A stretch of 64,000 nt of DNA. It comes from Melioribacteraceae bacterium (GTDB lineage Bacteria; Bacteroidota; Ignavibacteria; Ignavibacteriales; Melioribacteraceae). A program made the translations under genes and the position numbers. The stretch is from positions 62,001 to 126,000 of the forward strand of contig JAEINS010000013.1 of assembly GCA_016342755.1 (NCBI GenBank), written 5' to 3'. Below are positions 36,366-46,269 of the stretch, piece by piece; the stretch's first letter is position 1, and each line of letters starts with the position of its first letter. The notes beneath the pieces were generated by a model, which worked only from the letters and a program-made list of their open reading frames with translations, ran no database searches and was not told the DNA's origin.

Positions 36366-36380
36366 TGGCATCTTTGTTGG
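36366..36380 (+). promoter_or_regulatory. Candidate sigma-54 (-24/-12) promoter of the redox operon
   Basis: TGGCAT-CTTTG-TTGG fits TGGCAC-N5-TTGC with two mismatches and correct spacing, and resembles the element at 1296-1310 (both contain GGCA-N3-TTTGTTG or close to it). It lies 54 bp before the ATG of the first gene. A sigma-54 regulator is encoded 5.3 kb downstream. A palindrome GTGTT-N9-AACAC (36388-36406) lies just after the predicted start of transcription. Confidence 0.5.
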
Positions 36381-36434
36381 TTAAATAGTGTTGAAAATTG
36401 AAACACATTAAAATTTAATAAATAGGAGTCCAAG

Positions 36435-37100
36435 ATGGTTTTTGCATTAGTTTTTATAACCGTTGTTTTCTTTCTTCTAGCAGACTATTTTATAAAGAGA
36501 GAAGATAAAAAAACAGAAAAAAGACTTAAAGAAAATAAGTCGCCAATCTTTTTATCGCCAGAAAAAGCATTACTTAAACTAGGTGATGAAGAAAAAAGAC
36601 TTTATCACACAAGTCACACATGGGCAATGAAATCAGAAAATAAAGATGTTTATGTAGGGCTTGATGATTTTGTTTCTGAAATTTTTTCTGACACAGTAAA
36701 AGTTGAAAAACTTCCTTTTATCGGTGAGTTTGTTTCACAGGGCAGTGAAATCTGGCAAATCAATTATGCCGGAAAATTAGTAAAACAATTAGCTCCGGTT
36801 TCTGGTGAAGTTATTGAAATTAATCCGGCTCTAAAAATGGATATTCCTCTTGCATCTAAAGATTTAGAACATTCATGGATGGTTAAAATAAAACCTAAAA
36901 ACTATGATAATGAAAGAAATAATCTGATAAACCACGAGCAGCACAAATTTATTGCTAAATCAATACGCGATGAAGTAATTATGAATGCACAGGAAGAACA
37001 TTTTTTGAATGACGGCGGAGAAATTCATTCCGATTTTATAAAACACATGGAAGTTGGGGAATGGAATGATTTCTTAAAAAAATATTTTCCATATCACTAA
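36435..37100 (+). CDS. Membrane-anchored H-protein-like (lipoyl-fold) protein 1
   Basis: The 221-aa protein has an N-terminal helix (FALVFITVVFFLLADYFI, about 3-20) and a soluble domain with the fold of glycine-cleavage H protein: HTSHTWAMKSENKDVYVGLD, then LPFIGEFVSQGSEIWQINYA, then KQLAPVSGEVIEIN. In true GcvH the lipoyl lysine is 8 residues before the P of PVSGEV; here that position is Gly and a Lys lies one residue later. It is longer than GcvH (about 130 aa) and has an extra C-terminal part (HLND onward). No glycine decarboxylase genes are near; instead it heads an operon for a NrfD-type complex. An AGGAG ribosome binding site is present. Confidence 0.78.
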   Translation: MVFALVFITVVFFLLADYFIKREDKKTEKRLKENKSPIFLSPEKALLKLGDEEKRLYHTSHTWAMKSENKDVYVGLDDFVSEIFSDTVKVEKLPFIGEFVSQGSEIWQINYAGKLVKQLAPVSGEVIEINPALKMDIPLASKDLEHSWMVKIKPKNYDNERNNLINHEQHKFIAKSIRDEVIMNAQEEHFLNDGGEIHSDFIKHMEVGEWNDFLKKYFPYH

Positions 37101-37146
37101 ACCGTAATAAGAATTTTGTTTAAGATAAAATAAAAAGGATGCTAGA

Positions 37147-37998
37147 ATGGATAGAAGAAATTTTATGAAGGCAGTTGGTCTAATGGGGCTGGCAACTATG
37201 CCCGGAAAAAAGACAAAAGCCGGTCAGTCGGTTTCTGATAAAGAATTTAACGCAATATTAATTGACACAACTTTGTGCGAGGGTTGTGAAGCATGTTTAG
37301 ATGCCTGTTCGGAAAGCAATAAATTGCCGGAAGCTGTAACTGACCCAGTAGCCGGTATTGAAAATAAAACATCGCCAAATCAGCTTGCTGTAGTAAACAT
37401 GTATAATGTTGAAGATCTAGAGGTAACAGTAAAAAAGCAGTGTATGCATTGTAATCAGCCGGCATGTGCTTCGGCCTGTTTAACAAACGCCATGTTTAAA
37501 ACAGAAGAAGGTCCGGTAATTTGGAGAGCGGATAAATGTATGGGCTGCCGTTTCTGTATGTTATCCTGTCCTTATGATATTCCAAAATTTGAATATGAAA
37601 AAGTTAATCCGGATATAAAAAAATGTAATATGTGTTACGATAGAATAAAGGATGGTGATATTCCGGCGTGTGCGGAAGCTTGCCCGGCAGAAGCAATTGT
37701 TTATGGAACAAGAAAAGATATGCTTGAAGAAGCAAGAAGAAGAATTTATCAGAATCCGGATGATTATGTACATCACATTTTTGGAGAAGATGAAGTTGGC
37801 GGAGCGAGTGTGTTATATTTATCAGCCGTTCCTTTTGAAAAATTAGGCTTCAAAACAAAATTAGGTAACGAAGCAATGCCAAAATTAACTACCGATTTCT
37901 TATACAGTGTGCCGGTTATAGAAACACTTTTACCGCCATTTTTATTGGCTATAAGTTTTGCCGCAAAAAAAAGTAAAGAAGCAGGAGAGGGGAAATAA
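37147..37998 (+). CDS. Tat-exported four-cluster 4Fe-4S subunit (HybA/DmsB type)
   Basis: The 283-aa protein has the N-terminal Tat-type motif DRRNFMKAVGLMGL (RRxFxK). Four cysteine sets follow: CEGCEACLDAC, CMHCNQPACASAC, CMGCRFCMLSC and CNMC then ACAEAC, the pattern of HybA/DmsB/NrfC/HmcB electron-transfer subunits. A hydrophobic C-terminal segment (VIETLLPPFLLAISFAA, about 256-272) may anchor it. It would pass electrons between a periplasmic partner and the NrfD-type membrane subunit encoded 2 bp downstream. No catalytic molybdopterin or hydrogenase subunit lies alongside. Confidence 0.92.
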   Translation: MDRRNFMKAVGLMGLATMPGKKTKAGQSVSDKEFNAILIDTTLCEGCEACLDACSESNKLPEAVTDPVAGIENKTSPNQLAVVNMYNVEDLEVTVKKQCMHCNQPACASACLTNAMFKTEEGPVIWRADKCMGCRFCMLSCPYDIPKFEYEKVNPDIKKCNMCYDRIKDGDIPACAEACPAEAIVYGTRKDMLEEARRRIYQNPDDYVHHIFGEDEVGGASVLYLSAVPFEKLGFKTKLGNEAMPKLTTDFLYSVPVIETLLPPFLLAISFAAKKSKEAGEGK

Positions 37999-38000
37999 AT

Positions 38001-39257
38001 ATGGAAAAGAATAAAAAGAACAAACCGAATTTCTCATCAGAGTTTAAAAATTTCTTTAAATTTCTTTTGAGCGAAATGAAACCAAAAGGCAAATTGTTAA
38101 CTCCCTTTAATATAATTGCTGCGTTTGTAATTGCTTTAGGCGGAGTGTTAATATTCTTCCGATTTTATAATGGTCTTGCAAGTGTTACAAATCTTTCACA
38201 AGAATTCCCATGGGGCATTTGGGTGGGATTTGATGTTATTACGGGAGTTGCATTTGCTGGCGGAGCTTATGTTGTAACTTTTTTAGTTTACATTTTAAGA
38301 ATGGAAAAATATCATGCTATTGTCCGTGTTACAGTATTAAACGGTCTTTTAGCTTATATGTTCTATGCTGGCGCTTTATTGCTGGATCTTGGTAAACCCT
38401 GGAATATTATAAATCCGGTTATTGGTAATTCTTTTGGTATGAATTCGGTAATGTTTCTGGTGGCCTGGCATTTTTTACTTTATATGACTGCTGAGTTCCT
38501 GGAATTTTCGCCTGCAATTGCCGAATGGCTTGGATGGAAAAAAGTTAGAAAAGTACTTCATGGAATGACTTTGGCAACAGTAATTGTCGGTATTACTTTA
38601 TCAATACTGCATCAGGCAGGTTTAGGCGGATTATTTTTAATGGCAAAAAGTAAAATTCATCCGTTATGGTATTCAGAGTTTATTCCAATTCTATTTTTTG
38701 TTTCAAGTATTTTTGCCGGACTTTCAATGGTAATTCTTGAAGGAAGTATTACTCATAAGGTATTTTTTAGAAAGTTAACTCCCGAGCTAAAAAGAACTCA
38801 TCATGATATATTGTTGGGTTTATCAAAAATATGCGGCGGAACAATGTTTGTATATTTATTTCTAAAAGCCTTAACATTTTTACATGAGCAGCATTGGCAT
38901 TATATATTTTCACCAATGGGTAACTGGTTTTTAGTTGAAATAGTTTTCTTTGTTGTATTACCAATGATTATGTTTACACAGGCTGCCAGATACCGCAACG
39001 TAAAACTTGTAAAAGCTTCATCAATTTTAACCCTTTTGGGAATTGCGTTAAACAGATTAAACATCTCTATAATTGCTTTTAAATGGGATGCTGTGGAAAG
39101 ATACGTTCCTACATGGATGGAAATTGAAATTACAATGGCAATTATTTTAGTTGAAATAGTTGTACTTGGCTGGATAATAAATAGAATGCCAGTGTTGGGT
39201 GAATCTCCAATGTGGGTGAAAGAACAAGAAAAAGCAGCAGAAAATTTAGCACATTAA
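38001..39257 (+). CDS. HybB/NrfD-family membrane subunit
   Basis: The 418-aa integral membrane protein has about ten helices of the HybB/HmcC branch. Typical stretches are FPWGIWVGFDVITGVAFAGG (about 68-87), LNGLLAYMFYAGALLLDLGKPW and HQAGLGGLFLMAKSKIHPLW. Family members exchange electrons with the quinone pool without haem, through the Fe-S partner. It starts 2 bp after the ferredoxin gene and is followed after 15 bp by a second H-protein-like gene. Confidence 0.93.
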   Translation: MEKNKKNKPNFSSEFKNFFKFLLSEMKPKGKLLTPFNIIAAFVIALGGVLIFFRFYNGLASVTNLSQEFPWGIWVGFDVITGVAFAGGAYVVTFLVYILRMEKYHAIVRVTVLNGLLAYMFYAGALLLDLGKPWNIINPVIGNSFGMNSVMFLVAWHFLLYMTAEFLEFSPAIAEWLGWKKVRKVLHGMTLATVIVGITLSILHQAGLGGLFLMAKSKIHPLWYSEFIPILFFVSSIFAGLSMVILEGSITHKVFFRKLTPELKRTHHDILLGLSKICGGTMFVYLFLKALTFLHEQHWHYIFSPMGNWFLVEIVFFVVLPMIMFTQAARYRNVKLVKASSILTLLGIALNRLNISIIAFKWDAVERYVPTWMEIEITMAIILVEIVVLGWIINRMPVLGESPMWVKEQEKAAENLAH

Positions 39258-39272
39258 ATTAGAGGTTATAAA

Positions 39273-39971
39273 ATGGAAGGATTTCATCAAGTAGATCTTT
39301 TTGCAACTAAAGGAATTGAATACATCCTTGTTATAGGATTTTTAGTGGCCTTTACATTATATATAAAATACTTAAATGGTACACCAAAAAAATTGAGACA
39401 AAAAGTTAATGAATTTGAACCACAATTATCATTAGTTGATTGGTTCTATCTAGCGAAAGATTATTTATATCACCAAGGACACAGTTGGGTTTTGCCGCAA
39501 GGCGCAACTGAAGTAAAAATTGGCGTGGATGATTTTTTACAGAAAATGGTTGGCAAACCTGATAAAATTAATCTGCCTGATGTTGGTGCGGCAATTTATC
39601 AAAATAAAGTCGGCTGGAATTTTGAAATTGATAACAAAACAATTGATATACTTGCGCCAATTGACGGGAAAGTGTTAGAGATAAATAAAGAAGTTCTTAA
39701 TAATCCTGAGTTATTAAATAAGAATAGTTATAAAGATGGCTGGTTAATGAAAGTTGAAGTTAAAAATTTGCCAACTCAGAAAAAAGTATTGTTCACCGGA
39801 AATTTAGCCAAAGCATGGATTGAAGATACAATAGAGAATGTAAATTTAATGATGAATGGAGAGCCTGGTGTTGTAATGCAGGACGGCGGTTCTTTAATGC
39901 CTGGTTTTATAAAAGAGATTTCTAAAGAAAACTGGCATAATGAGATTAAGAAATTTTTGTTAACTGAATAA
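39273..39971 (+). CDS. Membrane-anchored H-protein-like (lipoyl-fold) protein 2
   Basis: The 232-aa protein is paralogous to the gene at 36435. Its N-terminal helix is YILVIGFLVAFTLYIKYL (about 17-34). The H-protein-like domain has HQGHSWVLPQGATEVKIGVD, VGAAIYQNKVGWNFEIDN and DILAPIDGKVLEINKEVL. As in copy 1, a Lys lies 7 residues before the P of the APxxGxV turn, not 8 as in lipoylated GcvH, and the position expected for lipoyl-Lys is Asn. The C-terminal part (MQDGGSLMPGFIKEIS) matches the DGG-x4-FIK region of copy 1. Its stop is followed by a strong hairpin, so it ends the operon. Confidence 0.78.
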   Translation: MEGFHQVDLFATKGIEYILVIGFLVAFTLYIKYLNGTPKKLRQKVNEFEPQLSLVDWFYLAKDYLYHQGHSWVLPQGATEVKIGVDDFLQKMVGKPDKINLPDVGAAIYQNKVGWNFEIDNKTIDILAPIDGKVLEINKEVLNNPELLNKNSYKDGWLMKVEVKNLPTQKKVLFTGNLAKAWIEDTIENVNLMMNGEPGVVMQDGGSLMPGFIKEISKENWHNEIKKFLLTE

Positions 39972-40080: not shown

Positions 40081-41670
40081 ATGAAAATATTTAAACTACT
40101 TAGTTTTAAGCTATTCATTTTTATTACAATTTTACTAACGGCGCTTACATTTCTTTTTTCGCTTACTCACCTAAAAGAAGAAGAAAAAAGATTTGAAAAA
40201 ATGCTTACTGATTGTTCAGTTAGGGCAAGTAACACAATACTAGGCTCAACTTACAGTTCAATGCTGAAAAATAGAAAAGAAGAAGCTTTCGAAATTATTC
40301 ATCATATCTCAAATCAGGCCGATATTGAAAAGGTGAGGATTTTTAATAAGAATGGCGTAATTATCTACTCCTCGGATACACTAGAAATAAACACGGTAGT
40401 TGATCTGCAAAACGAATCATGTATTATTTGTCATACTGGTTCGGAAATTGTTAAGCCGTTAACTAAAAATCAGAGAAAAAGAATTTTTGAAAAAGACGGG
40501 CACAGAGTTCTTGGGATGACATCTCCAATTGAAAATTCTAAATCATGTTCTAATTTAGATTGTCATGTTAGTCCGGAAGTGCAGCTTGTACTTGGAGTGT
40601 TAGATGTTCAGATGTCTCTATTAAAAACTGATGGATATGTGGCCGAAAGAAAATCAACTTTATATTCCCAAAATATTTCAATTACATTAATTATAGCTTT
40701 ATCAGTCGGGTTAATGATATTTATTATGGTTCATCAGCCAGTAAAAAAAGTTATTATAGGTACAAAAGAAGTTTCTTCGGGAAATCTTAATTATAAAATT
40801 AATTGTAATAATAAAAATGAAATCGGTTCGCTGGCAAGGTCGTTTAACAGAATGACTGATGATTTGAATAGTGCCAAAAAGGAAATTACTGCATGGTCCG
40901 ATGAACTTGAAAAACGAGTAGAAGAAAAAACAGAAGAATTAAAAAAAACACAGGCTAGAATAATTCATATAGAAAAAATGGCTTCGTTAGGCAAACTTTC
41001 CGCAACAGTTGCGCATGAGTTAAATAATCCTCTTGCAGGTATTTTAACCTACAGTAAACTTATTCAGAAAAAATTAAATAAAGAAGGTGTACACCTGGCC
41101 GAAAAGGAAGCACTGTTAAAATATTTAGGTATGATTGAATCAGAGAGCGGTCGCTGTGGATCAATAGTTAAAAACATGCTGCTGTTTTCTAAAAAACAAG
41201 ATATTGAATTTAAAAAACTTGATATAAATAAAGTTATTGATAGTACAATTCATTTAGTTGATCATCATCTTAAAATTAATAATATTAGTCTTAATACAAA
41301 CTTAGCGGAAAATTTACCTCTAATTTCTATTGATGAGAATCAGATTAAACAGGCATTGCTTGCCATTTATTTAAATGCTGTTGAGGCAATTGAAAAGGAT
41401 GGAACTCTGAGTGTTAAAAGTGAATTAAATATTAAAACAAACAGAGTAATTATTTCTATTCAGGATAATGGACGCGGAATTCCAGAAAAAATAAAATCCC
41501 AAATTTTTGAACCATTCTTTACAACTAAAAACGCGGTTAAAGGCGTAGGACTTGGACTTTCGATAGTTTATGGTATTATAGAAAAACATAATGGCGAAAT
41601 TTTTGTAGAATCAGAAGTAGACAAGGGAGCAACCTTTATTATAAAACTTCCTGTAGATAAAAAGGAGTAA
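40081..41670 (+). CDS. Sensor histidine kinase with haem c motif in the extracytoplasmic domain
   Basis: The 529-aa kinase has a first helix at about 8-27 and a periplasmic domain (about 28-195) containing CIICH near residue 118, a c-type haem binding motif. A second related motif, CSNLDCH (C-x4-CH), lies near residue 160. A second helix follows ([17 protein letters not shown]), then HAMP, a coiled coil, HisKA with [11 protein letters not shown], and HATPase with [15 protein letters not shown] and GLGLSIVYG. It would sense redox state or a haem ligand. The response regulator gene follows after 2 bp, so the two form a two-component pair with the redox operons as likely targets. Confidence 0.9.
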
Positions 41671-41672
41671 AA

Positions 41673-43025
41673 ATGGATCCTGCTAATGTAAAAATTCTTG
41701 TAGTTGATGATGATGAAATTGTAAGAGAATCATTATCCGACTGGTTTGAAGAAGACGGTTATTCTGTGGGAACAGCCTGTGACTCAAAAGAAGCTCTGGC
41801 AAAGTTGAATGAAGCCAGATGGGACATTTACTTTCTTGATATAAAAATGCCCGGCATGGATGGTCTTGAACTTCATAAAAGAATTAAGGACTTTGATAAA
41901 GACGCTATAGTTATAATTATTACGGCCTTTGCTTCGGTTGATACAGCTGTAAACGCGTTAAAAGACGGTGCCTTCGATTATGTTACTAAACCGTTTGATC
42001 CAGATTCCTTAACTCACATTATCAGAAACGCTATTAAGCAGAGAAATTTAACTAAAGAAAATCTGGAACTTAAAGAAAGCCTTGAATCCTTAACTCTGCC
42101 CCCTGAGATAATTGGGCAAAGTAAACATATAAGAGAGATTCAAGAGTCAATTAAAACAGTAGCGGCAACTAATACTACTGTTATGATAAGGGGTGAAAGC
42201 GGAACAGGTAAAGAGTTGGTTGCACAATCAATTCATTTTAAAAGTAACAGAAAATTTGCACCTATGGTTTCTGTTAACTGTGGTGCTTTATCGGAAACGC
42301 TTCTGGAAAGCGAATTATTTGGGCATGAGCGCGGATCCTTTACCGGAGCGCACAGCAGGCGCAAAGGTAAATTGGAAATTGCTGATGGCGGAACCTTGTT
42401 TCTGGATGAGATAGGATCAATTCAGACTAAGACACAAATTGATCTGTTAAGGGCAATTGATGCAAAAGAGTTTACCAGACTGGGTGGAAACGAAATAATT
42501 AAATCTGATTTCAGAATTGTGTGCGCAACTAACACCAATCTGGAAGAAGCCGTGAAAAAGGGTGAATTCCGTGAAGACCTTTATTACAGGCTTCAGGTTT
42601 ACACAATTTATTTAAAGCCTTTAAGAGAGCGTTCGGATGATATTCCTGAACTTGTAAACCATTTTATAAGAGTTTATAACGCTAAGATGAACAAAAAAAT
42701 TACGGGAATTGAAACTTCTGCTCTAAACAGAATGATTAATTTTAGCTGGCAGGGAAATATAAGAGAATTAGAAAATACTATTGAACGTGCTATGGTTTCA
42801 GCAAAAGGTATAATGTTAAGTAACCATGATTTTGCGTTTATTAATTGCGATGATAAACTTACACTCAGTCAGAATCTTTCATTAGCGGAAGTGGAAAAAA
42901 GGCATATTATAAAAGTGCTGGATCAAACTGATTGGAATATATCGCAGACAGCTAAAATTCTGGAGATTGATAGAGCCACAATTTATACAAAACTTCAAAA
43001 ATATGGAATTTCAAGGCCGGACTGA
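41673..43025 (+). CDS. Sigma-54-dependent response regulator (NtrC family)
   Basis: The 450-aa protein has a receiver domain (VVDDDEIV; phospho-acceptor in [11 protein letters not shown] near residue 55), an AAA+ domain with Walker [13 protein letters not shown], sigma-54 loop GSFTGA and Walker B LFLDEIGS, and a C-terminal Fis-type helix-turn-helix ([20 protein letters not shown]). The sigma-54 loop has Ser for Ala at its second position. It is the partner of the haem-type kinase just upstream, and a -24/-12-like element lies in front of the operon at 36435. It lacks its own promoter signature and is cotranscribed with the kinase. Confidence 0.95.
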
Positions 43026-43026
43026 T

Positions 43027-43545
43027 ATGAGAAATCTAATAATTTCGCATGTTAATTTTGAGTATTCCAAATTACTTGATGAAATAAATAATGAGATTTC
43101 TGAATTAACAAGATCTGTATTAAAAATAGAACAAATCGATAAAAATTTTGATGAGTTTTTTAATTCGGAACGAGGGCAGTACGACGCATCAAAGATCATT
43201 AAATCACTTCAAAAGAAAGACGATTCAAAGACAATAATATTTACGAGCGTGGATATATATATACCTATTTTTACATATGTATTTGGCTTAGCAAAGTTAA
43301 ATGGCTGTACCGGAGTTATTTCTTCTCAGCGGCTTTCCAATAATTATTATGGAATTCCTGAGAACCCGGATATTCTTAAAAGAAGATTAGTTGTTGAAAC
43401 TGTACATGAATTTGGTCATTTAATGGGGCTTAGGCATTGTGAAAATGTAAGCTGCGTAATGGCAAGTTCAACTGCTGTGGATGAACTGGATGTTAAAAAC
43501 ACAGACTATTGTAAAAAATGTTCTTCTATCTTTATCAATTATTGA
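43027..43545 (+). CDS. Archaemetzincin-family metalloprotease
   Basis: The protein has 172 aa. It starts at ATG 43027, one base after the regulator stop. It contains the full archaemetzincin zinc signature: HEFGHLMGLRHC, then CVM four residues on, then about 16 residues to CKKC. The catalytic Glu and third zinc His are present (HExxHxxGxxH), and the four cysteines form the second zinc site of the family. Archaemetzincins are proteases with few known substrates; in bacteria the role is unknown. Tight coupling to the two-component pair suggests a role in turnover or maturation of redox proteins (inference). Confidence 0.9.
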   Translation: MRNLIISHVNFEYSKLLDEINNEISELTRSVLKIEQIDKNFDEFFNSERGQYDASKIIKSLQKKDDSKTIIFTSVDIYIPIFTYVFGLAKLNGCTGVISSQRLSNNYYGIPENPDILKRRLVVETVHEFGHLMGLRHCENVSCVMASSTAVDELDVKNTDYCKKCSSIFINY

Positions 43546-43687: not shown

Positions 43688-44146
43688 ATGAATGAAAATC
43701 AAAAGTTCGATTCATTATCAAAGGAACTTACTTTTTTAACATGCGAGTTATCAAGAGCTTGTCAAAATAAAGAGAAATTCTTCGCTTCTACTTTCAATTT
43801 AACACTTGCGGAGTTCAAATGTTTAAGATTGTTTACTGGAAGATCGTATCTTTCTATTAAAGAATTAGCTAGTGAAATGAACATAACTCCGGGCAGAATT
43901 ACTCACATATTAACTTCTTTAGAGGATAAAAAGTTTATCTTAAGAAAGATTGACCAGACTGATAGACGAAATGTAATTGTGCATCTTACTTCTAAAAGTG
44001 AACCTTTTATAAAAAATCTAAATGAAAGTCATGTTAAACAACATAAAGAAATTTTGGATAAGATAGCACCTGAAAACCGTGACCTGGTAATTTCAGCCAT
44101 TAAGGATTTGATTAAAGCTATTAAGCATTGGTCTGAAAAATCGTAA
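43688..44146 (+). CDS. MarR-family transcriptional regulator
   Basis: The 152-aa winged-helix protein has recognition region LSIKELASEMNITPGRITHI (about 57-76) and wing KKFILRKIDQTDRRNVIVHL (DRR motif of MarR). An AGGAGG-type ribosome binding site is present. MarR proteins usually repress neighbouring genes and release DNA upon binding a ligand or oxidation; Cys18, Cys26 and Cys43 lie in the N-terminal half. It lies 44 bp before the multihaem cytochrome gene and is the probable regulator of that gene and of itself. Confidence 0.93.
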   Translation: MNENQKFDSLSKELTFLTCELSRACQNKEKFFASTFNLTLAEFKCLRLFTGRSYLSIKELASEMNITPGRITHILTSLEDKKFILRKIDQTDRRNVIVHLTSKSEPFIKNLNESHVKQHKEILDKIAPENRDLVISAIKDLIKAIKHWSEKS

Positions 44147-44190: not shown

Positions 44191-46269
44191 ATGAAATTTA
44201 CTTCTAAAACTTTAATAACTCTATTTGCTTTAATTATATTGACCGTATTTACCCCGATTAAAGCTCAAGAAGAAACATGCATTGATTGTCATGACGAAGA
44301 AGAATTCACACCGATTTTAGCAGAATCAGTTCATGCAGATAATGAGTGTGCCGATTGTCATACGTATGCTGCTGAAAAAATTGAAACTCATGGCGATGAT
44401 GGAATTCCCGTCGCGCAAAAAGCTGATTGCATTAGTTGTCATGAAGATATAGTAGAAGAACATAAAGAAAGTGTTCATGGATTATCCATTGCAAATGGTT
44501 TTGATGAAGCCGCTCAATGCTGGAGCTGTCATGGAGGACATGATATAAGTTTTGTTGCCGATTCAACATCAAAAGTAAATTCCGCAAACATTGCGGAAAC
44601 CTGTGATAAATGCCATGCCGATGAGGATCTGATAGAAAAATATAATTTAACTATCAGTGGTCCCGGGGCAATGTATAGTGAATCAATTCATGGAAAATTA
44701 GTAAAAGAAGGTAAAGATGCCGCAAGATGCGAATCATGTCACGGAGTTCATGATATAAAAAATAGAATGCAGCCGAATTCGAAAATTGCTAGTTATAATA
44801 TTCCGGAAACCTGCGGCGAATGTCATTCCGAAATTGCTGAAGAATATAAGCAGTCAATTCACTGGTTAAGAGCCAGAAAAGGAATAAAGAATGCTCCGGT
44901 TTGTAACGATTGCCACAGTGAACATAGTATTAAAGGACTTTCAGAAGGAAGCAAAAGAAAGAAAAGCATTAAACTTCAGCAAGAAACATGTTTAAAATGT
45001 CATCAGGATTTAGTAACTCAAAATAGATACACATCTTCTGTTAGCCAGGCAGCCAGTTACCAGGATAGTTACCATGGTCTTGCAATTATGAGAGATGATG
45101 AAGATGCGGCTATGTGTGTTGATTGTCATGATGTTCATAAAATTCTTCCGGCAATGCACGCCGAATCAAGCGTTTCTAAAGAAAATGTAACAGCTACATG
45201 TCAAAAGTGTCATGAAAATGCTACAGAAAATTTCTCTGTAAGTTATTCGCATCAAACAATAGACAAAGATGCCAGATTTATTGAATCTGTTGTAGAGAAT
45301 GTATATTTCTGGATGATTATAGTTGTAATTGGCGGAATGGTTATTCATAATCTAATAATATTCATTTTCGAAATTTATAAACGCAGACAAAAACAAAAAA
45401 GAGTTATTACCGTTCCAAGATTTACTAAAAACGAATTAGTTCAGCATTTAATGTTGTTGGTAACATTTATATTACTAGCAATAACAGGTTTCGCTCTAAA
45501 ATATCCAAACAGCTGGTGGGCCGAAGGTTTACAAGCAGCCGGTATGACCGAAACTGTAAGACAATGGACTCATAGAATTTCTGCTGTTCTTATGCTTGTT
45601 GCCGGTTTTTACCACGTGTTTTACCTATTTGCAACCGGTCGTGGCCGGGAAGTTCTTTTAGGATTTTTGCCAACGTTAAAAGATTTAACCGGTGCAAAAG
45701 ATAATGTTCTTTATCATTTAGGAATAAAAAAAGAGAAACCAGAATTTGAAGTTTACAATTATGCCGAAAAAGCAGAATACTGGGCTTTAATTTGGGGTAC
45801 ATTTGTAATGGGTGCTACAGGTTTCATTTTATGGTTCCCAACAATTATTGGTGACTGGGCTCCAGTCTGGCTGATAAAAGTGAGTGAAATTATTCACTTC
45901 TACGAAGCAATTCTAGCCACACTTGCTATTATTGTATGGCACTGGTTCTTTGTTATATTCCATCCTGGTGAATACCCAATGAGTTTCACTTGGATTGATG
46001 GTGAAATGACTATTAACCATTATAAAGAGCATCATAGAAAACATTTTAAAAAAGTTGCTTTAGAACTTGTTGAAGTTGAACATAAAACTAAGTTAGCAGA
46101 AGATTTAAGTGTGACAACTAAATTATTTGTAAATACACTTAAGAAGCATGGATTTGATCCGTATGAAGTTGTGCATAAACAAATGCATGATGATGCTGAA
46201 TTGAAAGCATGGATTGAAGATAAATTTGGTACAATTAAAATCGATTCTTCAAAATATGATTTAGGATAG
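44191..46269 (+). CDS. Undecahaem cytochrome c fused to b-type membrane cytochrome (CbcL-like)
   Basis: The 692-aa protein has a signal peptide (KTLITLFALIILTVFTPIKAQ). A periplasmic region follows with 11 CxxCH motifs that I counted by reading (CIDCH, CADCH, CISCH, CWSCH, CDKCH, CESCH, CGECH, CNDCH, CLKCH, CVDCH, CQKCH). Then come about five membrane helices of the HydC/FdnI b-type cytochrome family (from VYFWMIIVVIGG at about 370, TGFALKYPNSWW, WTHRISAVLMLVAGFYHVFY, WHWFFVIFHPGEYP). This arrangement is that of CbcL, which oxidises menaquinol for low-potential extracellular electron transfer in Geobacter (9 haems there). Substrate and outer partners are not seen here. Confidence 0.9.
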   Translation: MKFTSKTLITLFALIILTVFTPIKAQEETCIDCHDEEEFTPILAESVHADNECADCHTYAAEKIETHGDDGIPVAQKADCISCHEDIVEEHKESVHGLSIANGFDEAAQCWSCHGGHDISFVADSTSKVNSANIAETCDKCHADEDLIEKYNLTISGPGAMYSESIHGKLVKEGKDAARCESCHGVHDIKNRMQPNSKIASYNIPETCGECHSEIAEEYKQSIHWLRARKGIKNAPVCNDCHSEHSIKGLSEGSKRKKSIKLQQETCLKCHQDLVTQNRYTSSVSQAASYQDSYHGLAIMRDDEDAAMCVDCHDVHKILPAMHAESSVSKENVTATCQKCHENATENFSVSYSHQTIDKDARFIESVVENVYFWMIIVVIGGMVIHNLIIFIFEIYKRRQKQKRVITVPRFTKNELVQHLMLLVTFILLAITGFALKYPNSWWAEGLQAAGMTETVRQWTHRISAVLMLVAGFYHVFYLFATGRGREVLLGFLPTLKDLTGAKDNVLYHLGIKKEKPEFEVYNYAEKAEYWALIWGTFVMGATGFILWFPTIIGDWAPVWLIKVSEIIHFYEAILATLAIIVWHWFFVIFHPGEYPMSFTWIDGEMTINHYKEHHRKHFKKVALELVEVEHKTKLAEDLSVTTKLFVNTLKKHGFDPYEVVHKQMHDDAELKAWIEDKFGTIKIDSSKYDLG

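What the first reader, a model, noticed from the sequence alone, without database searches (positions are those of the whole stretch)
36435..39971. Possible undescribed redox complex: two membrane-anchored H-protein-like subunits flank a Tat-type four-cluster ferredoxin and a NrfD/HybB subunit
HybA/HybB-like pairs normally partner a catalytic molybdoenzyme or hydrogenase, or multihaem cytochromes. Here the only partners in the operon are two lipoyl-fold proteins, each with an N-terminal membrane helix, placed symmetrically at both ends. No glycine-cleavage genes are present. The lipoyl-fold subunits could carry a swinging thiol or sulfur group, as lipoate-binding proteins do in sHdr sulfur oxidation, or act as structural subunits. 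This is the strongest candidate in the window for a new system.
Basis: partly seen in the sequence, partly recalled or inferred. Interest (0 to 1): 0.8.

Follow-up and report, generated by a model that had tools for sequence, protein, structure and literature searches.

The report
Redox sensing module with H-fold subunits
A four-gene membrane electron-transfer complex carries two copies of a protein fold normally used in glycine breakdown, and related genomes show that this fold belongs to a conserved unit with a haem-bearing sensor kinase, so it probably couples respiration to signalling rather than carrying a chemical group.

Summary
The four genes are real and intact: H1 (36435-37100), a Tat-signal ferredoxin with 16 Cys (37147-37998), NrfD (38001-39257), H2 (39273-39971). 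H1/H2 have a GcvH-type domain (AlphaFold of H2 matches GcvH structures) behind one membrane helix, but lack the lipoyl lysine (G and N; 17 of 17 GcvH have K). A swinging lipoyl arm is therefore unlikely.
The same-strand run continues with a histidine kinase bearing CXXCH+CX4CH haem motifs, a sigma54 response regulator, an archaemetzincin, MarR and an 11-haem c/b cytochrome. Relatives in Ignavibacteria, a KSB1 phylum and a Gemmatimonadales phylum keep H, FeS, NrfD, H2, kinase, regulator and archaemetzincin together. Elsewhere the H domain is fused to response-regulator receiver domains, or flanks a Qrc-like complex. In 38 related genomes kinase and H-like genes co-occur (29 of 31 with it; 0 of 7 without).
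Best reading: a redox-responsive module in which non-lipoylated, cytoplasmic H-fold subunits couple an Hmc-like quinone/cytochrome complex to a haem-sensing two-component system. The coupling is well supported; direction, signal and chemistry are inferred. Ten searches of one open-access library found no description. New variant of known parts.

The parts
36366..36381 (+). possible sigma54 (-24/-12) site TGGCAT-N5-TTGGT, 69 nt before H1
   Evidence: two mismatches; its score 11.5 is just under the background 95% level of 11.7, so weak on its own. Similar sites are enriched upstream of related TM-H genes (19 of 52 at or above that level)
36435..37100 (+). H1: one N-terminal helix + GcvH-type domain + DGG tail; no lipoyl lysine (G)
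37147..37998 (+). Tat-signal ferredoxin, 16 Cys, C-terminal hydrophobic stretch; HmcB/HybA-like
38001..39257 (+). NrfD/HmcC-like integral membrane subunit; N and C termini predicted cytoplasmic by K/R count; the only match to the HmcC model in this genome
39273..39971 (+). H2: HmcD-like N-terminal helix + GcvH-fold domain + DGG tail; no lipoyl lysine (N)
40081..41670 (+). sensor histidine kinase with periplasmic CXXCH and CX4CH (two predicted c-haem sites), HAMP, HisKA, HATPase
41673..43025 (+). sigma54-dependent response regulator (REC, AAA+ with GSFTGA, HTH_8)
   Evidence: sigma54 gene present in genome
43027..43545 (+). archaemetzincin-like zinc protease, HEFGHLMGLRHC (named from this motif, recalled; first listed start is at 42967, start at 43027 inferred)
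43688..44146 (+). MarR-type regulator between the module and the cytochrome gene (assigned by eye from the translation)
   Evidence: no family search run on it
44191..46269 (+). 11-haem c-type + b561-type membrane cytochrome (CbcL-like layout), neighbour of the module in 9 of 15 genomes of the family with a close orthologue

Best explanation
This is one operon of a conserved redox-signalling module. An HmcBC-like complex (periplasmic four-cluster ferredoxin + NrfD) exchanges electrons between the quinone pool and periplasmic carriers. H1 and H2 are non-lipoylated GcvH-fold domains held on the cytoplasmic face by one helix each; H2 uses an HmcD-like helix and so probably is a true subunit. They act as protein-protein coupling (adaptor or gating) subunits between the complex and the haem-motif sensor kinase, which reads periplasmic electron flow or a haem ligand. 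The kinase signals to a sigma54 regulator, which likely activates this operon and respiratory genes such as the neighbouring 11-haem c/b cytochrome. In relatives the same H domain is fused to a receiver domain, so there the kinase can act on the H domain directly. Shown: anatomy, loss of the lipoyl lysine, conservation, co-occurrence, fusions. Inferred: complex formation, signal, direction and targets.
For: Order H-FeS-NrfD-H2 followed by kinase, regulator and archaemetzincin in L033, L034, L054, L165, and with that set on the facing strand in L154. Seven H2 orthologues form one clade (support 0.93), and 59 H-like tips lie apart from 17 GcvH (support 0.96). REC-H and TM-REC-H fusions sit beside FeS-NrfD-13-haem-kinase, with the acidic pair, phospho-Asp, Thr and Lys of REC invariant in 11 of 11 rows. 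Of 108 kinase ORFs of 450-700 aa similar to the window's (E<1e-20, some partial copies of one gene), 104 carry both haem motifs (58 of 58 in the first set, 53 distinct sensor cores). The kinase occurs once or twice in each genome that has it; 30 of 36 kinase places lie within 10 kb of an H-like gene; 29 of 31 kinase-bearing genomes have an H-like gene against 0 of 7 without (Fisher 2.9e-6, not corrected for ancestry). G043 and G045 keep both halves although they lie on different contigs. H genes also flank a Qrc-like complex beside the same kinase set (L190, L191). 114 of 117 TM-anchored H proteins have more K/R after the helix. 9 of 15 close cytochrome orthologues lie within 10 kb of the kinase.
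Against: No biochemical or expression data. The two-component system could simply regulate expression of an ordinary respiratory complex. In the window the ferredoxin is exported, so cytoplasmic H domains cannot touch it and could only meet NrfD. L066 and L085 have H-X-kinase-regulator without FeS/NrfD in the fetched 18.7 kb. G044 has kinase, regulator and archaemetzincin and no H-like gene. In 7 of 54 FeS-NrfD pairs the neighbours held H and X but no kinase. Four of 108 similar kinases have one haem motif only, two of them (L168, L169) beside H-like genes. The 15 more distant cytochrome matches (35-41% identity) are never within 10 kb of the kinase, and over all fetched loci the cytochrome is within 8 kb of only 10 of 109 kinases. 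The window's own sigma54 site is weak, and such matches in the window are no more common than chance. The haem may sense NO rather than redox (preprint PMC12889525 on related single-haem Cache domains).
Confidence: 0.57

Rival explanations
1. An ordinary Hmc-like quinone:cytochrome c oxidoreductase in which H1/H2 are merely structural subunits; the neighbouring two-component system only controls its transcription.
For: FeS keeps 16 Cys, and FeS and NrfD score best with HmcB/HmcC. H2 has an HmcD-like helix. Sigma54-like sites are enriched upstream of related TM-H genes.
Against: Receiver-H fusions put the H domain inside the signalling pathway. H-X-kinase-regulator units exist without FeS/NrfD in the fetched stretch (L066, L085). 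The same H/kinase set attaches to a different, Qrc-like complex.
Confidence: 0.28
2. H1/H2 carry a lipoyl, thiol or sulfur group and feed it to the NrfD complex, as lipoate-binding proteins do in sHdr sulfur oxidation.
For: GcvH fold and homology; a lysine lies one residue after the lipoyl position in both.
Against: The lipoyl lysine is G in H1 and N in H2 and is not conserved in the family, while 17 of 17 true GcvH keep it. The domains lie cytoplasmic by charge while the window's ferredoxin is exported.
Confidence: 0.04
3. H1/H2 are assembly or quality-control factors for the FeS/NrfD complex, with the archaemetzincin as an associated protease.
For: Archaemetzincin with an intact zinc site in 57 of 59 copies is part of the conserved set. 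Cytoplasmic membrane-anchored accessory proteins next to FeS/NrfD are compatible with this.
Against: Receiver fusions and tight linkage to the haem-motif kinase are not expected of a chaperone; the HmcD-like anchor of H2 suggests a subunit.
Confidence: 0.08

Closest known systems
Hmc complex of Desulfovibrio (HmcB, HmcC, HmcD)
   Same: Best NCBIfam matches of FeS and NrfD; H2's helix matches HmcD weakly
   Different: All below curated cut-offs; no HmcA, HmcE or HmcF recognised by eye among the ORFs from 30 to 64 kb; added GcvH-fold domains; haem-motif kinase and sigma54 regulator
Qrc menaquinone reductase (QrcABCD)
   Same: NrfD-type complex. In L191 H-like genes flank a 5-haem/QrcB/QrcC/QrcD-like set (QrcD over cut-off, QrcB and QrcC under); L190 and L192 have the same layout
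   Different: The window has no molybdopterin-like subunit and its NrfD is nearer HmcC
GcvH of the glycine cleavage system
   Same: Same fold over about 120 residues
   Different: No lipoyl lysine, membrane helix, extra C-terminal DGG tail, respiratory/signalling neighbours, separate clade
c-haem periplasmic sensors (DUF3365/sCache_heme; Geobacter GSU0582, GSU0935; two-motif GSU0591 and GSU0599)
   Same: Periplasmic sensor with CXXCH, here with a second CX4CH, feeding a kinase. Passages of PMC8396549 and PMC3831638 report two-motif proteins in Geobacter and Anaeromyxobacter
   Different: No Pfam match to PF11845 at E<=0.1; linkage to NrfD and H-fold genes is not mentioned in the passages I read
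CbcL / CbcBA of Geobacter and their regulation (BccR, recalled)
   Same: The window cytochrome has the CbcL layout (multihaem c + b-type); a haem-sensor/sigma54 pair near such a cytochrome recalls GSU0599/BccR/CbcBA
   Different: Homology to CbcL or BccR not tested here; no H-fold or NrfD role known to me there

Membership tests
Glycine cleavage H protein (GcvH) | lipoyl lysine in the E-x-V-K hairpin | tested here: not met
   H1 G; H2 N (alignment read against it); 17 of 17 GcvH have K
Glycine cleavage H protein (GcvH) | score above curated GcvH cut-offs | tested here: not met
   H1 58.0/51.4 and H2 78.1/70.4 bits against 117/115.85
Glycine cleavage H protein (GcvH) | GcvH fold | tested here: met
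   (H2 model; H1 by profile only)
Hmc complex | HmcB, HmcC, HmcD over curated cut-offs | tested here: not met
   285/420, 394/550, 18.6/34 bits
Hmc complex | HmcA (16 haems), HmcE, HmcF in the operon | tested here: inconclusive
   none recognised by eye among ORFs of 30-64 kb; no profile search for them, in the window or genome-wide
HybA/HybB (hydrogenase 2) | curated cut-offs | tested here: not met
   217/263 and 258/450 bits
sHdr lipoate-binding proteins | lipoylation site | tested here: not met
sHdr lipoate-binding proteins | Hdr-like partner genes | not tested
   none recognised by eye; no profile search
sCache_heme (DUF3365, PF11845) sensors | PF11845 match | tested here: not met
   only Cache_WalK, E 0.0039, under its cut-off
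c-haem sensor kinases | periplasmic c-haem motif(s) + HAMP/HisKA/HATPase | tested here: met
   (haem attachment itself not testable here)
sigma54 enhancer-binding response regulators | REC + AAA+ with GAFTGA-type loop + Fis-type HTH | tested here: met
   sigma54 gene in genome
CbcL | multihaem c domain fused to b-type cytochrome | tested here: inconclusive
   11 CXXCH and PF01292; no direct comparison with CbcL made
Quinone-reactive NrfD complex | quinone binding and turnover | not testable with these tools
   needs biochemistry

The most novel reading that the evidence does not exclude
The GcvH fold has been recruited as a phosphorelay-linked regulatory domain of respiratory complexes: haem-sensing kinases gate quinone/cytochrome complexes (Hmc-like, 13-haem and Qrc-like) post-translationally through cytoplasmic H-fold subunits, either free with a DGG tail or fused to a receiver, giving bacteria direct two-component control of electron flux as well as of gene expression.
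Probability: 0.3. Interest if true: 0.9.

Novelty: new variant of a known kind. Interest (0 to 1): 0.74.

Why it matters
How anaerobes with branched, cytochrome-rich electron transport measure redox potential and choose a pathway is still open. Here a sensor with two haem motifs, a quinone-type complex and unusual H-fold proteins travel together in three phylum-level groups, which makes the question directly testable. It also warns against reading GCV_H annotations next to NrfD genes as glycine cleavage or sulfur carriers, and gives archaemetzincin a conserved bacterial context.

Tried and rejected
Lipoyl or thiol carrier: rejected on the lysine test. Chance neighbourhood: rejected by conserved order in many genomes. 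Direct ferredoxin contact with H1/H2 in the window: unlikely, opposite membrane sides (Tat motif against K/R rule). Flipped NrfD in loci whose ferredoxin has no Tat motif: the K/R pattern of loops is similar in the three types (4, 38 and 11 proteins), so how that ferredoxin is placed stays unexplained. Sigma54 consensus search in the whole window: 11 matches against 21.9 expected, no support by number. Scan for sigma70 promoters and terminators: at chance, uninformative. Sequence search of the sensor domain against solved structures: nothing convincing (best E 0.019). Model of X, the Cys-motif H protein: mean pLDDT 67, Cys region mostly under 60, not used for fold search. Literature: ten searches listed no paper that I recognised as describing this gene set; most subscription papers are not in that library. 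Papers: passages only of PMC4641369, PMC5585712, PMC3831638, PMC8396549, PMC10553843, PMC11434368; abstract, section list and passages of PMC12889525; others seen as search listings. BccR, GSU0598 and the cbcBA regulation are recalled.

Rows dropped before counts: one search left out a short H fragment of L073, five of 45 X proteins without a model-matched domain, and did not tabulate two H proteins without a detected helix. One search left out two pairs with truncated ferredoxins (L003, L004). In the 38-genome table the single match of each of the 7 kinase-free genomes, and of G001 and G044, was taken as GcvH from its frame length (130-139 aa). Many loci overlap; exact duplicates were removed by sequence, partial copies were not always. 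In one search, 109 kinase sequences include contig-edge and short-flank loci, where missing neighbours mean little: an H-like gene lies within 8 kb of 91 of 109 (28 of 31 non-edge), FeS 79, NrfD 82, sigma54 regulator 66, archaemetzincin 56, cytochrome 10. Most of these loci were fetched by H-like searches, so only the comparison is free of that bias. Gene labels are my own, from similarity to the window's proteins and three alignments, not curated annotation.

Full report
OBSERVATION. The four genes lie at 36435-37100, 37147-37998, 38001-39257 and 39273-39971, all + strand, 46, 2 and 15 nt apart. Pfam gives GCV_H for the first and last, 4Fe-4S domains for the second and NrfD for the third. The ferredoxin has 16 cysteines, an RRNF Tat motif and a C-terminal hydrophobic stretch followed by lysines. 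NCBIfam places ferredoxin and NrfD nearest to HmcB and HmcC, below the curated cut-offs, and ahead of HybA and HybB. The first helix of H2 gives a weak match to HmcD (E 0.0014), stronger in an orthologue (E 1.6e-4). AlphaFold of H2 (mean pLDDT 81) matches GcvH crystal structures, best E 1.9e-13.

NOT A CARRIER. I aligned H-domain proteins from fetched loci with 17 true GcvH. All 17 have the lipoyl lysine. At that column H1 has G, and by the family alignment H2 has N; among relatives K stands in 7 of 54 membrane-anchored H, 0 of 40 X, 1 of 32 REC-H and 9 of 28 TM-REC-H proteins. The 59 H-like tips of a 76-tip tree lie apart from GcvH (support 0.96). A DGG tail marks the proteins without a receiver (TM-H 80 of 81, H 16 of 16, X 59 of 62) and is missing in those with one (0 of 37 and 0 of 36). 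That mutual exclusion suggests that tail and receiver do related jobs; this is inference.

THE REAL UNIT IS LARGER. Downstream on the same strand come a histidine kinase with CXXCH and CX4CH in its periplasmic part, a sigma54 response regulator (GSFTGA), an archaemetzincin (HExGHxxGxxHC), MarR, and an 11-haem c/b561 cytochrome. In relatives the order H-FeS-NrfD-X-(4-haem)-kinase-regulator-archaemetzincin recurs, 25 of 54 FeS-NrfD pairs have H, X, kinase, sigma54 regulator and archaemetzincin all near. X is an H-like protein without a helix in most cases, with four cysteines invariant in 13 of 13 rows. The window's own order H-FeS-NrfD-H2 recurs in L033 and L034 (same family), L054 (Bacteroidetes MAG), L154 (phylum of a KSB1 MAG) and L165 (phylum of a Gemmatimonadales MAG); in L165 the ferredoxin begins with RK instead of the RR pair. 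In L155 (KSB1 phylum) FeS-NrfD-H2 is followed by a 3-haem protein, X and TM-H. In L154 and L155 the archaemetzincin-regulator-kinase set lies next to it on the facing strand. The seven H2 proteins, window included, form one clade (support 0.93). A second type has FeS-NrfD-13-haem cytochrome-kinase followed by REC-H and TM-REC-H fusions. A third has H genes on both sides of a 5-haem/QrcB/QrcC/QrcD-like set with kinase, archaemetzincin and regulator beside it on the other strand (L191: QrcD 585 bits, over its cut-off of 570; QrcB and QrcC under theirs; L190 alike by layout; L192 alike but with no archaemetzincin found).

CO-OCCURRENCE. In 38 genomes (own, family and order) the kinase sensor region was found in 31, at 36 places. 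Compared with the H2 search of the same genomes, 29 of the 31 have an H-like gene beyond GcvH and 0 of the 7 without the kinase do (Fisher 2.9e-6; shared ancestry not corrected). 30 of 36 kinase places lie within 10 kb of an H-like gene. Exceptions: G001 and G020:C302 lie at contig ends; G043 and G045 have the H-FeS-NrfD-X set on another contig; G047:C22 has none near; G044 has none in the genome at that sensitivity. Of 108 similar kinase ORFs 104 have both haem motifs; four (L168, L169 and second kinases of L155 and L193) have one. Matches to the H-family profile (E <= 1e-25) occur in 34 of 82 genomes of the KSB1 phylum (one of them, G388, only with a short frame of 156 aa) and 9 of 150 of the Gemmatimonadales phylum. 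In 118 genomes of the window's own phylum, the 13 matches outside its class have frames of 126-190 aa, as expected of plain GcvH. The host is an Ignavibacteria member: inferred from titles of contigs whose lengths equal those of same-family genomes. Other phyla, Desulfobacterota among them, were not searched except by one Cys-motif pattern.

CYTOCHROME. Close orthologues of the 11-haem c/b cytochrome (E <= 1e-190) occur in 15 of the 38 genomes; in 9 of the 15 (window included) they lie within 10 kb of the kinase. The 15 weaker matches (E 1e-126 to 1e-89) are in none of their genomes within 10 kb of it. A similar gene adjoins the kinase in KSB1-phylum loci L155, L157 and L158. Over all fetched loci it is near 10 of 109 kinases, so it is a frequent partner in the window's family and in some KSB1 loci, not a fixed one. 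[quoted passage not shown] I did not compare it with CbcL directly.

REGULATION. Sigma54-like sites are enriched upstream of related TM-H genes (19 of 52 regions at or above the 95% level of 321 control regions); sequences are related, so this is indicative. The window's own site scores just below that level. The genome encodes sigma54.

MECHANISM. Shown: anatomy, loss of the lipoyl site, conserved gene sets, receiver fusions with intact REC residues, a one- or two-copy kinase tied to H genes. Inferred: the ferredoxin/NrfD complex is quinone-linked and, in the window, periplasm-facing; H1/H2 sit on the cytoplasmic face (114 of 117 anchored H proteins follow the positive-inside pattern) and couple the complex to the kinase; the regulator drives the operon and cytochrome genes. 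Whether the complex informs the kinase, or the kinase gates the complex, is open: receiver fusions favour the second, free H plus sigma54 regulator fits the first.

KNOWN WORK. Sensors with c-haem, including two-motif ones such as GSU0591 and GSU0599, are known (passages of PMC8396549 and PMC3831638), and a 2026 preprint (PMC12889525, abstract and passages) reports haem Cache domains with NO-sensor properties when fused to signalling modules. None of the passages read links such sensors to H-fold proteins or NrfD. Ten searches of the open-access library listed no description of this gene set that I recognised.

Noticed in passing
43027-43545: Archaemetzincin-like protease usually follows the sigma54 regulator in this operon type; 57 of 59 copies keep the zinc site. 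Its role is unexplained.
   Followed up: partly
L042:11084-11836 and other X proteins: X proteins: H-like proteins with an N-terminal C-x12-C-x5-C-x2-C motif, possibly a metal or Fe-S site, placed where H2 sits in the window.
   Followed up: partly
L191:12400-13356, L190:14445-15386: Another Cys-rich N-terminal stretch on an H-like protein at the start of Qrc-like operons.
   Followed up: no
L039:6131-6889 and others of the 38 proteins of type b: Ferredoxin without Tat motif but with a C-terminal hydrophobic stretch and a positively charged tail, next to NrfD of unchanged charge pattern; its orientation is unclear.
   Followed up: partly
L036:5176-6303 and similar: 13-haem cytochrome c encoded between NrfD and the haem-motif kinase in the REC-H type operons.
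   Followed up: no
L038 (G012:C37:7234-7359): A short HmcD-like frame (about 50 aa, 44% identical to residues 1-41 of H2) follows NrfD where H2 would be; H is present there as REC-H and TM-REC-H instead.
   Followed up: partly
L224 (G044): Kinase-regulator-archaemetzincin set without any H-like or NrfD gene in the fetched 19 kb; an exception to the association.
   Followed up: no
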